Assembly: GCA_003138815.1 (NCBI GenBank) | Contig: PLHD01000027.1 | Location: 1 to 48,260, forward strand | Length of the DNA: 48,260 nt | Reading direction: 5' to 3' | Source of the DNA: Acidimicrobiaceae bacterium | GTDB lineage: Bacteria; Actinomycetota; Acidimicrobiia; Acidimicrobiales; RAAP-2 | In this document: positions 1 through 48,260 of the stretch, one piece after another | Layout of the letters: each line of letters opens with the position of its first letter | How positions within the stretch are numbered: position 1 is the stretch's first letter | Position numbers and translations under genes: made by a program | The notes under the pieces: model-generated | Seen by the model: the letters and a program-made list of their open reading frames with translations, nothing else | What the model was told of the DNA's origin: nothing | Database searches by the model: none

Positions 1-133
1 TAACCAGTATGTGTGTCACAGGCCAGAGGCATTATGGCAGAGACCTCTACTGATTTGGTCCCCGACACATAGGTATTACGTGAGCAATTCCGCAGCCCCG
101 GCGTGTCACACGCGCGGCAAGACCAAGAGCCCG

Positions 134-2056
134 ATGGGCAACTGGCGACGTCCCCCAGACCAGGCGACGACGACGCTCGTGCTGAACCTCGACACCACGG
201 CGCCCGGCGTCGCTGGGCGCCTGGGGAACCTCTACTTCACCATGTTCAACCTTCGACGGGCCCTTCAACGCGACGCCCAGTCGCTCGCCAAACAGTACTG
301 GGGCGCTAAGGACGAGCGAGACGCCCTGGGCTGGAAGGCCGTAGCCGAACGGCTCGGCATCAGCCGCTCGAAGTTCGAGGCCCGAGCCCGGAGGCACTTC
401 CAGTCCGCGGGCTGGGCCAGTGAACATGTCTCGGCGGCCCTCGTCTCGCACATGGCCGATGGTGTTTTCGAGAACCTGACCCGCCACCTCTGGTCCGACG
501 CCTCGGGCAAACGTCACGGCCCCTTGCACGTGACCCCCTACCACGAGTTCGCGACCATCACCGGTCGTGCTCGCTCGCACACCACCGCGAACAAGTGGGA
601 GACCTTCCGGCTCTACGGCTCTCTCCAGGGACACCTCGACGCCTACCGTCACCCCAACCTCGCAGCCGGGACCAGCGTCGAACAAGTCCTCGCCATGGGC
701 GCGGGACACCAAGTGGCGCGCCAGCGTCGCTCGCGCCCGCCCGCGCCCCAGCGCTGGCCGCACTACCAAGGACCGCTCGTGATGGTCTTTGCCGGAGGAC
801 CGACCTCGACACAACCCGAGATGGTCCTACCCGTGCTGGTCCCCACCGGCTCGAGCAGGTGGGGACGTCTCGCGCACTTCCTTAACGATCCCGACACCTG
901 GCACAAGATCGACCTGGTGCGGCGTCCCGACGCCAACCGTCCAGGCGGTTGGCGTTATGAGATGCACCTGCTGGTCCTTAACGACGGCTACCACTCGCCA
1001 CGGGTGCGCGACCAGCTCGCGAGCGCCCCTCGCGACCGCGTGGCCTGCGTGGACGTGAACGTCTCCAACCTCTCCGTCGCCTCGCGCAATCTCACGATGA
1101 CCTCACTCAAGTCGACCGTGGTGAAGGTCACCGAGATCGAACACGAGCGCCTGGTGCGAGAAGCGCTCCAGAATCGACGTCGCCAGCGCTCCCTCGACCG
1201 CTCTCGGCGCGCGACCAACGTCGCGCAATATCAGAAGTCCCAGGCCCAAGTGCGCCGCGACCAACGTCGCGCAGAACAGGGCCTCAGTGAGGTCACCACC
1301 CTGCCGAGAGGTGCGCGTCTTATGCGCACCAAAGAGAAGCCGATCCAGGCATACCGTTGCGACAGTCTCTCACATCAGTACGCCCATTTGCGCACGATCC
1401 ACGGCGCACGTGCCCGCGCGGCGAGCATCACCAAAGGCCAGGCCGCTTGGGCGATCTCTCGAGAACTGATAACTATCCACGGACCAAACTGGATTGTCGA
1501 GGACTGCCACCTGCCAACCTGGAGTCGCTCTTGGGGCAACGCCATGGCAATCAGCGCGCCGGGCATGGTCACGTCCGCGCTCGCGGCCACCTGCGCCGAA
1601 CTCAACGGCTCTTACACCAAGGTCTCGACCGCCACCACGGCGCTGTCGAGCACCTGTCTGTGCGGCGCCAGGGTGAAGAAGGACCTCGGCGAACGCGTCC
1701 ACCGCTGCGCGTCCTGCGGGCTCGTCGGCGACCGGGACCTGGTCTCGGCGGCGCTGGGCACTTGCGTGACACCGGCCACGACCGAGGACGAGCATGACGT
1801 AGTCGACTCCGCCATCGCCACCGCGATGCGCCAGATGATCGCAATAATTGGGTGTGAAGTCACCCTCGTGAGTCAAACGCAACCTCTGGAACTGGGCCGC
1901 CACGGCTCAGTCCAAGCTGCCAGGCCAGATCCCATGGGTTCGGGCTGCTCACGTGAACGCCCACCAAGGGCGCCATCGACCAAAGGGCGCGGGCGACCGC
2001 GACCGGCGAAGGTGGCGCGACTGCGTGGGCTGGCTCTTAGTCACCCGACTGGGTGA
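134..2056 (+). CDS. Stand-alone TnpB-related RuvC nuclease (large actinobacterial type)
   Basis: Predicted RNA-guided DNA endonuclease of the TnpB/Cas12 lineage, about 640 aa. The RuvC triad is visible: Asp307 in ACVDVNVSNLS, Glu456 in WIVEDCHLP and Asp535 in GDRDLVSA. A zinc ribbon lies between the last two (CLC at 508-510, CASC at 525-528). The N-terminal half has the NLRRALQRDA and GRARSHTTANKWETFRL segments I associate with large TnpB-related proteins of Actinobacteria. I chose ATG 134 because the conserved region begins about 12 residues later; the frame stays open upstream to GTG 80 and GTG 11. No tyrosine (TnpA) or serine transposase lies beside it, so it is either a stranded accessory gene or a domesticated nuclease. 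The last 60 or so codons are low in recognisable protein signal and could double as the guide RNA scaffold (inference). The family is confident; activity is not known. Confidence 0.8.
   Translation: MGNWRRPPDQATTTLVLNLDTTAPGVAGRLGNLYFTMFNLRRALQRDAQSLAKQYWGAKDERDALGWKAVAERLGISRSKFEARARRHFQSAGWASEHVSAALVSHMADGVFENLTRHLWSDASGKRHGPLHVTPYHEFATITGRARSHTTANKWETFRLYGSLQGHLDAYRHPNLAAGTSVEQVLAMGAGHQVARQRRSRPPAPQRWPHYQGPLVMVFAGGPTSTQPEMVLPVLVPTGSSRWGRLAHFLNDPDTWHKIDLVRRPDANRPGGWRYEMHLLVLNDGYHSPRVRDQLASAPRDRVACVDVNVSNLSVASRNLTMTSLKSTVVKVTEIEHERLVREALQNRRRQRSLDRSRRATNVAQYQKSQAQVRRDQRRAEQGLSEVTTLPRGARLMRTKEKPIQAYRCDSLSHQYAHLRTIHGARARAASITKGQAAWAISRELITIHGPNWIVEDCHLPTWSRSWGNAMAISAPGMVTSALAATCAELNGSYTKVSTATTALSSTCLCGARVKKDLGERVHRCASCGLVGDRDLVSAALGTCVTPATTEDEHDVVDSAIATAMRQMIAIIGCEVTLVSQTQPLELGRHGSVQAARPDPMGSGCSRERPPRAPSTKGRGRPRPAKVARLRGLALSHPTG
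2041..2056 (+). other. Perfect inverted repeat at the tnpB-like stop codon
   Basis: Six-base arms TCACCC and GGGTGA flank a 4-base loop, and the stop codon lies inside the right arm. With one G-T wobble the stem extends to about 8 bp. IS605-type elements carry small subterminal hairpins at their ends, and TnpB guide RNAs end in such a structure at the right end, so this may mark the element's right boundary. It could equally be a short terminator shared with the convergent Lrp-like gene, whose stop is 15 bases further on. Confidence 0.45.
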
Positions 2057-2070
2057 TTACGAGTCATCTC

Positions 2071-2307
2071 TTAGATATTGACGACGGGGCAGGTCAGCGT
2101 GCGGGTGATCCCCGGGACCTTCTGGATGGCTCCGACGATGAACTTGCCCAGATCGTCGACGCTATCGGCCGAGCAGCGCACGATCACGTCGTAGGGGCCC
2201 GTGACCTCGAAGGACTCCATCACGCCGGGCACGGCACGGGTCGCCAGGACCACCGCTTCGCTCGAACCGATTTCGGACTGAATCAAGATGTACGCCTGGA
2301 CCGCCAT
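2071..2307 (-). CDS. Lrp/AsnC-type effector-binding (RAM) domain protein
   Basis: Small 78-residue protein consisting only of the RAM (ligand-binding) half of Lrp/AsnC regulators. The start reads MAVQAYILIQSE, followed by a beta-alpha-beta pattern and the typical GPYDVIVRCSA and PGITRTLTC stretches. There is no helix-turn-helix, so it probably does not bind DNA alone. Stand-alone RAM proteins are thought to sense amino acids by oligomerising, sometimes together with full-length Lrp proteins. It converges on the TnpB-like gene with only 14 bases between stops. Confidence 0.85.
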   Translation of the reverse strand: MAVQAYILIQSEIGSSEAVVLATRAVPGVMESFEVTGPYDVIVRCSADSVDDLGKFIVGAIQKVPGITRTLTCPVVNI

Positions 2308-28984: not shown

Positions 28985-29213
28985 GTCGCAGCGCCCTGGC
29001 GACGTTCTCTCCTCGGAGGCGGGTTCCCGCTGCGAAGACCGGCGAGACGATCGTCTTGAGGGTGCACGCGTACCACCCGCAGGGGACCCGACGGTACGAG
29101 TACTCGTCCACCGACGGGGGCCGCCTGTAGACCTTGAGACCATGAGAAAGCGACAAGACAGCGAGAGCGTGAACCCATCCCCAGCAATGTCCGAAGCGAA
29201 CCTCGGGCATCCT

Positions 29214-29560
29214 TGGAGATGCTGGGAATCGAACCCAGGTCCGTCAGCTTCTTAGTGATTCTTCTCCGAGCGCAGCTAGCAGCGAATTGTCGGGAACGAC
29301 GCTACTGCTAGCACCGATGCCATCCCTTAGTTAGCTAAGTTGTCCCGACGGAACCACTAACGAGTTCCATTGGTAAGCCCTACTTTTATGACGTCCGAGA
29401 TCTAAACCGCAGGGCTGGGTCTAGGCGAACGTTGCTACCTAAGCAGCAAGCGCAAATTGAGGCGTTGCGTTTATTTTTGTTTCCGGCTCTTTAACGTGGC
29501 TCCGGAGACCACGGCTCGCTTCTTTCACCTCGACGACTGACGTCGAAACCAATCATCCCC
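29214..29560 (-). ncRNA. ssrA: tmRNA (ssrA)
   Basis: Transfer-messenger RNA that rescues stalled ribosomes. The 5' end GGGGATGATTGG pairs with the 3' acceptor strand, and the T-arm GGTTCGATTCCC and ATCTCC-A end are tRNA-Ala-like. CCA is not encoded. The tag frame starts at a GCA resume codon after an AAATAAAC-type stretch and reads ATPQFALAA followed by TAG. That is a 9-residue tag, close in style to the Thermus tag. Pseudoknot-like GC blocks lie between the tag and the 3' end. The smpB gene is upstream on the same strand. Confidence 0.95.
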
Positions 29561-38694: not shown

Positions 38695-38774
38695 TGCGGG
38701 CGGAGGGACTCGAACCCACACTCCTTAGAACTGGTACCTAAAACCAGCGCGTCTGCCAATTCCGCCACGCCCGC
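38695..38774 (-). tRNA. trnL: tRNA-Leu (anticodon UAG)
   Basis: The acceptor stem GCGGGCG pairs with CGCCCGC, followed by discriminator A. The anticodon loop TTTAGGT sits in a CTGGT/ACCAG stem, giving UAG, which reads CUN Leu codons. The T-arm is GGGTTCGAGTCCC. A variable arm is present, but at 80 nt this is short for a class II tRNA. CCA is not encoded. Confidence 0.95.
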
Positions 38775-48184: not shown

Positions 48185-48260
48185 GCGGACGTAGCTCAGT
48201 TGGTAGAGCGCGACCTTGCCAAGGTCGAGGTCGCCGGTTCGAGCCCGGTCGTCCGCTCCA
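48185..48260 (+). tRNA. trnG: tRNA-Gly (anticodon GCC)
   Basis: The acceptor stem GCGGACG pairs with CGTCCGC, followed by discriminator T and an encoded CCA that ends the window. The anticodon stem CGACC/GGTCG holds TTGCCAA, giving GCC for GGC/GGU codons. The D-arm is GCTCAGTTGGTAGAGC and the T-arm CCGGTTCGAGCCCGG. All four arms pair. Confidence 0.96.

What the first reader, a model, noticed from the sequence alone, without database searches (positions are those of the whole stretch)
134..2056. Lone TnpB-like RuvC nuclease without a transposase partner
The RuvC triad and zinc ribbon are intact in a gene of about 640 codons, longer than ordinary TnpB (about 400). No TnpA or serine recombinase is beside it, although only 133 bases precede it here. 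TnpB proteins cut DNA guided by an RNA made from their 3' end, and some stand-alone forms have been domesticated. The N-terminal 300 residues are large enough for an unfamiliar guide- or target-recognition lobe.
Basis: partly seen in the sequence, partly recalled or inferred. Interest (0 to 1): 0.6.

Follow-up and report, generated by a model that had tools for sequence, protein, structure and literature searches.

The report
IS5-like transposon carrying TnpB nuclease
The supposedly lone gene is the right half of a bacterial jumping gene that pairs an ordinary DDE transposase with a large nuclease of the RNA-guided TnpB kind and a conserved RNA at its end, a partnership that in bacteria is usually described with other kinds of transposase.

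Summary
The gene is real: 640-660 codons, RuvC residues D307/E456/D535 and a four-cysteine ribbon conserved. "Lone" is wrong. The window is a whole contig that starts inside a mobile element. Contig C60 of the same genome ends with the missing left half: a matching inverted repeat and an intact 258-aa IS5-like DDE transposase, divergent from tnpB. The two flanks lie together in 19 of 19 relatives read, at a YTAR site (CTAG in 10).

Genus copies and elements on finished plasmids of Mycobacterium, Mycobacteroides and Euzebya share the layout: CTAAG-type inverted repeats, insertion in CTAG, divergent IS5-like transposase, ~650-aa TnpB-like protein. In the genus a ~235-nt right-end RNA has 24 of 64 pairs with two-sided changes; in the plasmid copies only a short RNA motif was shown.

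Best reading: a DDE insertion sequence that uses TnpB and an end-derived guide RNA to cut its own empty site and be copied back. Nuclease activity, guide and TAM are inferred; AlphaFold failed. Ten searches of an open-access library (listings, plus passages of five papers) showed no bacterial DDE-TnpB element; the 2023 survey I recall was not held.

The parts
11..2056 (+). Open frame of the long TnpB-like nuclease; start probably GTG 80 or ATG 134 (640 aa from 134)
   Evidence: purifying selection; start by comparison with relatives (inference)
1052..1054 (+). RuvC-I Asp (D307)
   Evidence: invariant in A2 and in 21 of 21 rows
1499..1501 (+). RuvC-II Glu (E456)
1736..1738 (+). RuvC-III Asp (D535, second D of DRD)
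1655..1717 (+). Zinc ribbon C-x-C ... C-x2-C (C508, C510, C525, C528)
1836..2074 (+). Right-end structured RNA (candidate guide-RNA scaffold), overlapping the 3' end of the open frame
   Evidence: covariation; model R1 match 1836-2074 (the window is one of the sequences it was built from); no Rfam family
1850..1879 (+). First hairpin of the RNA and conserved AGTCAAACG motif (1871-1879)
   Evidence: motif [AC]GTCAA[AC]CG in 15 of 16 loci of this family scanned; the hairpin before it by my reading, least clear in L168
2056..2071 (+). Right terminal inverted repeat (reads AGAGATGACTCGTAAT on the - strand)
   Evidence: matches the left end on C60
2072..2073 (.). TA of the target; target-site duplication within CTAG
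   Evidence: empty sites in relatives; other copies
2074..2093 (+). Predicted guide: flanking DNA directly after the right end (position and length inferred)
   Evidence: inference from TnpB biology and the position of the RNA
2071..2307 (-). Lrp/AsnC-like host gene whose stop codon lies at the insertion site (name by my reading of the translation)
1..12 (.). Contig-edge bases not present in the G016 copy; probable end of a nested or repeated element that broke the assembly

Best explanation
The gene is the nuclease of a ~2.8 kb insertion sequence with an IS5-like DDE transposase. Shown: inverted repeats of the form (C)TAAG...GTAA; insertion in CTAG/YTAR with a TA on both sides; a transposase gene at the left end and a divergent TnpB-like gene reading toward the right end; a conserved folded RNA (in the genus) that overlaps the tnpB 3' end and stops at the right end. 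Inferred: TnpB binds this RNA with the right-hand flank as guide. The transposase moves the element out of CTAG. The re-formed empty site carries the guide match next to a CTA(G) motif, TnpB cuts it, and recombination with an element-bearing copy restores the element. The target motif of the transposase would thus double as the TAM, as proposed for IS605/IS607.
For: Left half with intact DDE transposase on C60; flanks together in relatives; shared ends of copies; IS5-type assignment and D, D, E in 6 of 6 aligned transposases; same layout in four plasmid loci and, for the gene pair, in three further genomes of the phylum; RNA covariation and shared motif; selection on tnpB; RNA whole in one deletion derivative; 21 and 18 bases of the predicted guide matched in empty sites of two relatives.
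Against: No expression, cleavage or TAM data. In this genome a repeat seems to sit between transposase and tnpB, so this copy may be impaired. Several genus copies have broken transposase or tnpB frames. The left TA is now TG in this copy. The NCBIfam TnpB cut-off is not reached. R1 does not find the RNA in the four Mycobacterium/Mycobacteroides/Euzebya loci; only the short motif recurs there, and their alignment A6 was not folded. G958 and G1015 have partial genes with no transposase hit in the stretch held. Of two deletion derivatives one keeps only the last ~165 nt of the RNA. Low synonymous change over the RNA was seen only in the closest pairs.
Confidence: 0.72

Rival explanations
1. Passenger or decaying TnpB: the DDE element captured the gene, but the nuclease is no longer RNA-guided and only hitchhikes.
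For: Broken frames in G016:C9 and G007:C164; degenerate transposases; protein outside the curated TnpB cut-off.
Against: dN/dS 0.29-0.44 over the protein in six pairs of intact copies, RuvC residues kept in 21 of 21 rows, compensatory changes in the RNA, persistence of the pair across actinobacterial classes.
Confidence: 0.13
2. RNA-guided binder or regulator rather than a cutter (as TldR): the RNP binds the flank or the element's own promoter.
For: Known for other TnpB relatives (an abstract in the listing describes TldR as RNA-guided transcription factors).
Against: RuvC residues intact; TldRs are recalled to have lost them; the element is mobile and multi-copy.
Confidence: 0.07
3. TnpB RNP assists the DDE transposase in choosing or modifying target sites (RNA-guided transposition).
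For: Recurrent co-occurrence of the two genes; end-derived RNA.
Against: By eye the insertion sites share only CTAG and no longer flank recurs; CTAG specificity alone can explain site choice.
Confidence: 0.05
4. Truly stand-alone or domesticated TnpB without a transposase.
For: No transposase within the window; no transposase was found in the G445 and G440 copies.
Against: C60 left half, inverted repeats and empty site.
Confidence: 0.03

Closest known systems
TnpB of IS200/IS605 and IS607 elements (ISDra2, ISFba1)
   Same: RuvC D-E-D, zinc ribbon, RNA at the 3'/right end in tnpB sense, adjoining the flank that would serve as guide
   Different: Here ~650 aa instead of 340-489 (PMC9956272, passages); C-x-C instead of C-x2-C in the first zinc knuckle; partner is a DDE transposase with inverted repeats and a TA on both sides, not Y1 HUH or serine recombinase
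Eukaryotic Fanzor1
   Same: Long TnpB homologue captured by DNA transposons, DDE ones included (Mariner, IS4-like, MuDr, Sola; PMC3627910 and PMC10711439, passages read); one described element has a 633-aa protein, inverted repeats and putative TA duplications
   Different: Bacterial, and the partner is IS5-like; relationship to Fanzor1 by tree was not tested
IS5-family insertion sequences (target groups YTAR, TNA, TA recalled)
   Same: HTH_Tnp_4 plus DDE_Tnp_4 transposase of ~258 aa, short inverted repeats, YTAR target
   Different: About 2 kb of extra DNA: a TnpB-like gene and a structured right-end RNA; scores under the NCBIfam IS5 cut-off

Membership tests
TnpB / OMEGA RNA-guided nucleases | RuvC D-E-D plus four-cysteine ribbon (PF07282) | tested here: met
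   PF07282 27.6 bits over 26.3; residues in 21 of 21 rows. The plasmid relatives score 20.5-25.4, under the cut-off
TnpB / OMEGA RNA-guided nucleases | Score above NCBIfam guided_TnpB cut-off (100 bits) | tested here: not met
   36.9 bits; not filed as an NF040570 member, only as a divergent relative of TnpB
TnpB / OMEGA RNA-guided nucleases | Structured RNA at the right end, sense with tnpB, ending at the element boundary | tested here: met
   that it is transcribed and processed was not testable
TnpB / OMEGA RNA-guided nucleases | RNA-guided DNA cleavage with a TAM | not testable with these tools
   needs biochemistry
IS200/IS605 | Y1 HUH transposase and hairpin ends without inverted repeats | tested here: not met
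   partner is DDE and the ends are inverted repeats
IS607 | Serine recombinase partner, no inverted repeats | tested here: not met
IS5 family | HTH_Tnp_4/DDE_Tnp_4 transposase with D, D, E | tested here: met
   PF13613 33.7, PF13359 30.9, PF01609 40.2 bits, all over cut-off; residues in 6 of 6
IS5 family | Score above an NCBIfam IS5 model cut-off | tested here: not met
   NF033581 30.8 bits against 140; hence 'IS5-like'
IS5 family | Short inverted repeats and YTAR-type target with duplication | tested here: met
Fanzor1 | Member of the eukaryotic Fanzor1 clade | not tested
   no Fanzor rows in the tree

The most novel reading that the evidence does not exclude
A sparse but phylum-wide actinobacterial lineage of DDE insertion sequences has joined a ~650-aa TnpB nuclease and a ~235-nt end-derived guide RNA, with the transposase's YTAR target motif serving as the nuclease's TAM. 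RNA-guided retention would then have arisen with a double-strand DDE insertion sequence in bacteria, in parallel with Fanzor1 in eukaryotes. The cousins with GGGTATCCATC-type repeats hint at a further coupling.
Probability: 0.55. Interest if true: 0.8.

Novelty: new variant of a known kind. Interest (0 to 1): 0.68.

Why it matters
The papers I could read passages of tie bacterial TnpB to Y1 (IS605), serine recombinase (IS607) or transposase-less IS1341 elements (PMC9956272, PMC10711439) and name DDE partners for eukaryotic Fanzor1 (PMC10711439, PMC3627910). A bacterial DDE element with TnpB and a covarying end RNA would give a tractable system to ask whether TnpB-driven retention works with DDE excision, and adds a group of long TnpBs that can be tested as RNA-guided nucleases.

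Tried and rejected
By sequence, solved structures match only weakly and in the C-terminal part (phmmer E 0.075; profile E 8.4e-4 to an AI-designed RNA-guided nuclease); the transposase has no match at E 0.1. Two viral-contig scans found no relatives, and phage records none. Rfam had no match for the RNA. R1 found the RNA in a Streptomyces plasmid locus (30.1 bits, E 9e-8), but not in the four Mycobacterium, Mycobacteroides and Euzebya loci, and not convincingly in cousins (L136, E 0.28) or next to an ordinary TnpB (L063, E 0.0064, not followed up). The order-wide transposase search matched only the own genome, 1 of 298 at E<=1e-25.

A preference for stop codons was considered. Right-hand open frames of 80 or more codons end exactly at 12 of 14 sites and left-hand ones at 5 of 12, but CTAG is itself rare and often at ORF ends in this window: 26 sites against 145 expected, 18 of 26 at an ORF end, 21 of 52 sides. 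I treat it as a by-product of CTAG targeting; the right/left difference is unexplained and rests on few sites.

Domestication was rejected because of the copies in relatives and the empty site. A Y1 or serine recombinase partner was rejected by the ends and the transposase found.

Literature: ten searches of an open-access library, seen as listings, showed no bacterial DDE-TnpB element. Absence there is weak: the 2023 PNAS survey of TnpB diversity (recalled) was not held.

Full report
Observation. The ORF 134-2056 (+) exists and is open from GTG 11. It carries the TNB ribbon above Pfam's cut-off (27.6 against 26.3 bits) and aligns with guided_TnpB over 303-539, though far below that model's cut-off (36.9 against 100). 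In a 21-row alignment with cousins and five ordinary TnpBs, D307, E456 and D535 are kept in 21 of 21 rows; the first zinc knuckle is C-x-C in this clade and C-x2-C in the five ordinary ones. NG86 dN/dS over the whole protein is 0.29-0.44 in the six pairs of four intact copies; by segment it ranges from 0.16 to 0.78.

Not lone. The window is the whole contig C51. blastn among copies from related genomes showed that the shared segment runs past the tnpB start by several hundred bases to a sharp left edge. In L042 a divergent gene with a weak DDE_Tnp_4 match lies there. The search of the own genome with it hit the end of contig C60. C60 ends with a left repeat GATGACTCGTAATCAC, the complement of the window's right end, and a 258-aa transposase with HTH_Tnp_4, DDE_Tnp_4 and DDE_Tnp_1 all over cut-off. 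The joined C60 and C51 flanks matched in 92 of 99 genomes of the genus. I read 19 junctions, one genome each: in all 19 the two flanks lie together, 2-9 bases apart in the alignments, and the site is CTAG in 10, TTAG in 8 and CTAA in 1 (my count from its printed rows). The open frames of two facing host genes end there. Hence C60 and C51 are most simply two sides of one insertion. The left TA reads TG in this genome.

A gap remains. C60 ends in a 20-mer also found at the ends of contigs C17 and C20, and with 1-2 mismatches inside C1 and C18; the G016 copy lacks this and the first 12 bases of the window. A repeat nested between transposase and tnpB is likely (inference).

Element anatomy. Ends of the copies: left (C)TAAGCGTTGAGTCGTAAG, right its near complement ending CTTAG. 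In the ten genus copies with both ends bounded (window with C60 counted as one), the left flank gives C-TA in nine and C-TG in one (C60), and the right flank gives TA-G in nine and TA-C in one (L045). Bounded lengths: 2555-2917 bp with transposase sequence (L042, L043, L044, L045 with an N gap, L048, L131), 2263 and 2119 bp in G445 and G440, which have tnpB and RNA but gave no transposase hit, and 730 bp in G446:C148, which keeps both ends and the whole RNA but little else. G016:C1 is another internal deletion; it keeps only the last ~165 nt of the RNA. Of 13 genus copies with sequence upstream of tnpB, nine have transposase sequence (window/C60, L042-L048, L131), one deletion derivative (L053/L074) has part, and three (L129, L130, L132) gave no transposase hit. 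Several of these transposases are degenerate or split.

Distribution. Genus: 14 of 99 genomes have a match at E<=1e-8 to the family profile; seven hold close members (G000, G007, G016, G408, G440, G445, G446) and seven only cousins. Class: 6 of 395. Order, with the single protein: 12 of 397, of which two hold close members. Phylum: 7 of 396 at E<=1e-20. Of these, G1062, G891 and G861 have near full-length members with an IS5-like transposase beside them, in pieces in G1062; G958 and G1015 have partial genes and no transposase hit in the stretch held. Plasmid records: 12 of 72,556 with a match, 5 covering at least 80% of the protein. In four of these five (two M. intracellulare, one Mycobacteroides abscessus, one Euzebya) a divergent 'transposase family protein' with DDE_Tnp_4 adjoins the gene, truncated in L160, and both ends are CTAAG-type repeats. 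In the fifth (Streptomyces, unannotated record) only a transposase remnant about 3 kb away was seen. In the phage records there was no match.

RNA. Aligned right ends of nine copies gave a 64-pair consensus with 24 pairs changed on both sides. None of 500 shuffles reached the observed paired cells, double changes or covariation; for further pair types 45 did. With three further copies: 94.2% of cells paired, covariation 0.292 against 0.137 shuffled and at most 0.066 when slid; 9 of 500 shuffles reached the pair types. The structure was derived from nine of these twelve rows, so it leans to them. Left out of the alignment: L053/L074 (165 nt only), L131 (N gap) and the plasmid copies. The RNA overlaps the last ~70 codons. 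In the two closest pairs synonymous difference is lowest in the last 95 codons: 0.013 between window and G016 (0.08-0.27 elsewhere) and 0.152 between two G408 copies (0.23-0.36 elsewhere). In the other five pairs it is not consistently lower; in the three with the window it is 0.59-0.66, highest or near highest. The motif [AC]GTCAA[AC]CG is near the right end in 15 of 16 loci of this family scanned (not L166, where I did not locate the right end) and in none of five cousins scanned; before it I read a hairpin, least clear in L168. The 9-mer occurs three times in the 48-kb window, both strands, this one included. Two ordinary TnpB loci of this genome also hold it near the tnpB 3' end: a shared core of TnpB RNAs, or chance.

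Phylogeny. The DDE clade is one side of a branch with 100/100 support. Its neighbours are ~640-aa proteins in elements with a different repeat (GGGTATCCATC) and no transposase seen inside, then hairpin-ended elements of G069 with two ungrouped rows. The tool warns of long branches, so deep placements are unsure.

Mechanism. Shown: architecture, target site, conserved protein and RNA. From published TnpB work (PMC11870625 and PMC11061315, passages read): TnpB uses an RNA from the element's end with the flank as guide, the TAM equals the transposase's target motif, and cutting of the empty site lets recombination restore the element. Inferred here: the same with CTA(G)/YTAR as TAM. In two relatives the empty site matches the first 21 (L082, CTAG) or 18 (L076, TTAG) bases after the window's right TA (read).

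Literature. Ten searches. Passages read: PMC9956272, PMC10711439, PMC3627910, PMC11870625, PMC11061315. Others were seen only in search listings. Bacterial TnpB is tied there to IS605, IS607 or IS1341; DDE partners are named for Fanzor1. IS5 subgroup targets and the loss of RuvC residues in TldR are recalled.

Verdict.

Noticed in passing
G000:C47:12177-12743 (L051): A second copy in this genome, truncated upstream but with an intact right end and RNA; it could supply a second guide.
   Followed up: partly
L136, L137, L052, L133 (G454, G008, G435): Cousin ~640-aa TnpB-like genes in elements with GGGTATCCATC-type end repeats and no transposase seen inside, with shorter deletion derivatives; the mobilising transposase was not found.
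   Followed up: partly
L054, L055, L056 (G069): Three copies of another long TnpB-like gene whose ends carry hairpins like IS200/IS605 elements.
   Followed up: partly
L063:4923-6608, L064:3800-5665, L065:5480-7219: Conventional TnpB genes in the same genome; two of them (L063, L064) were scanned and hold the GTCAACCG motif near their 3' ends.
   Followed up: no
L046:9519-10198: Transposase split into two frames overlapping by 4 bases; could be a programmed frameshift as in some IS5 groups (recalled) or a mutation.
   Followed up: no
Ends of G000 contigs C17, C20, C60: Shared 20-mer GATGCTCCTATGTTTGTCAA marks a repeat that breaks the assembly, probably nested in this element.
   Followed up: partly
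L163:1003-5981 (Streptomyces plasmid): Left-end-like sequence and a transposase remnant lie about 3 kb from tnpB, suggesting inserted cargo or a nested element.
   Followed up: no
window 29213-29560, 38695-38774, 48185-48257: tmRNA and two tRNA genes; ordinary.
   Followed up: no
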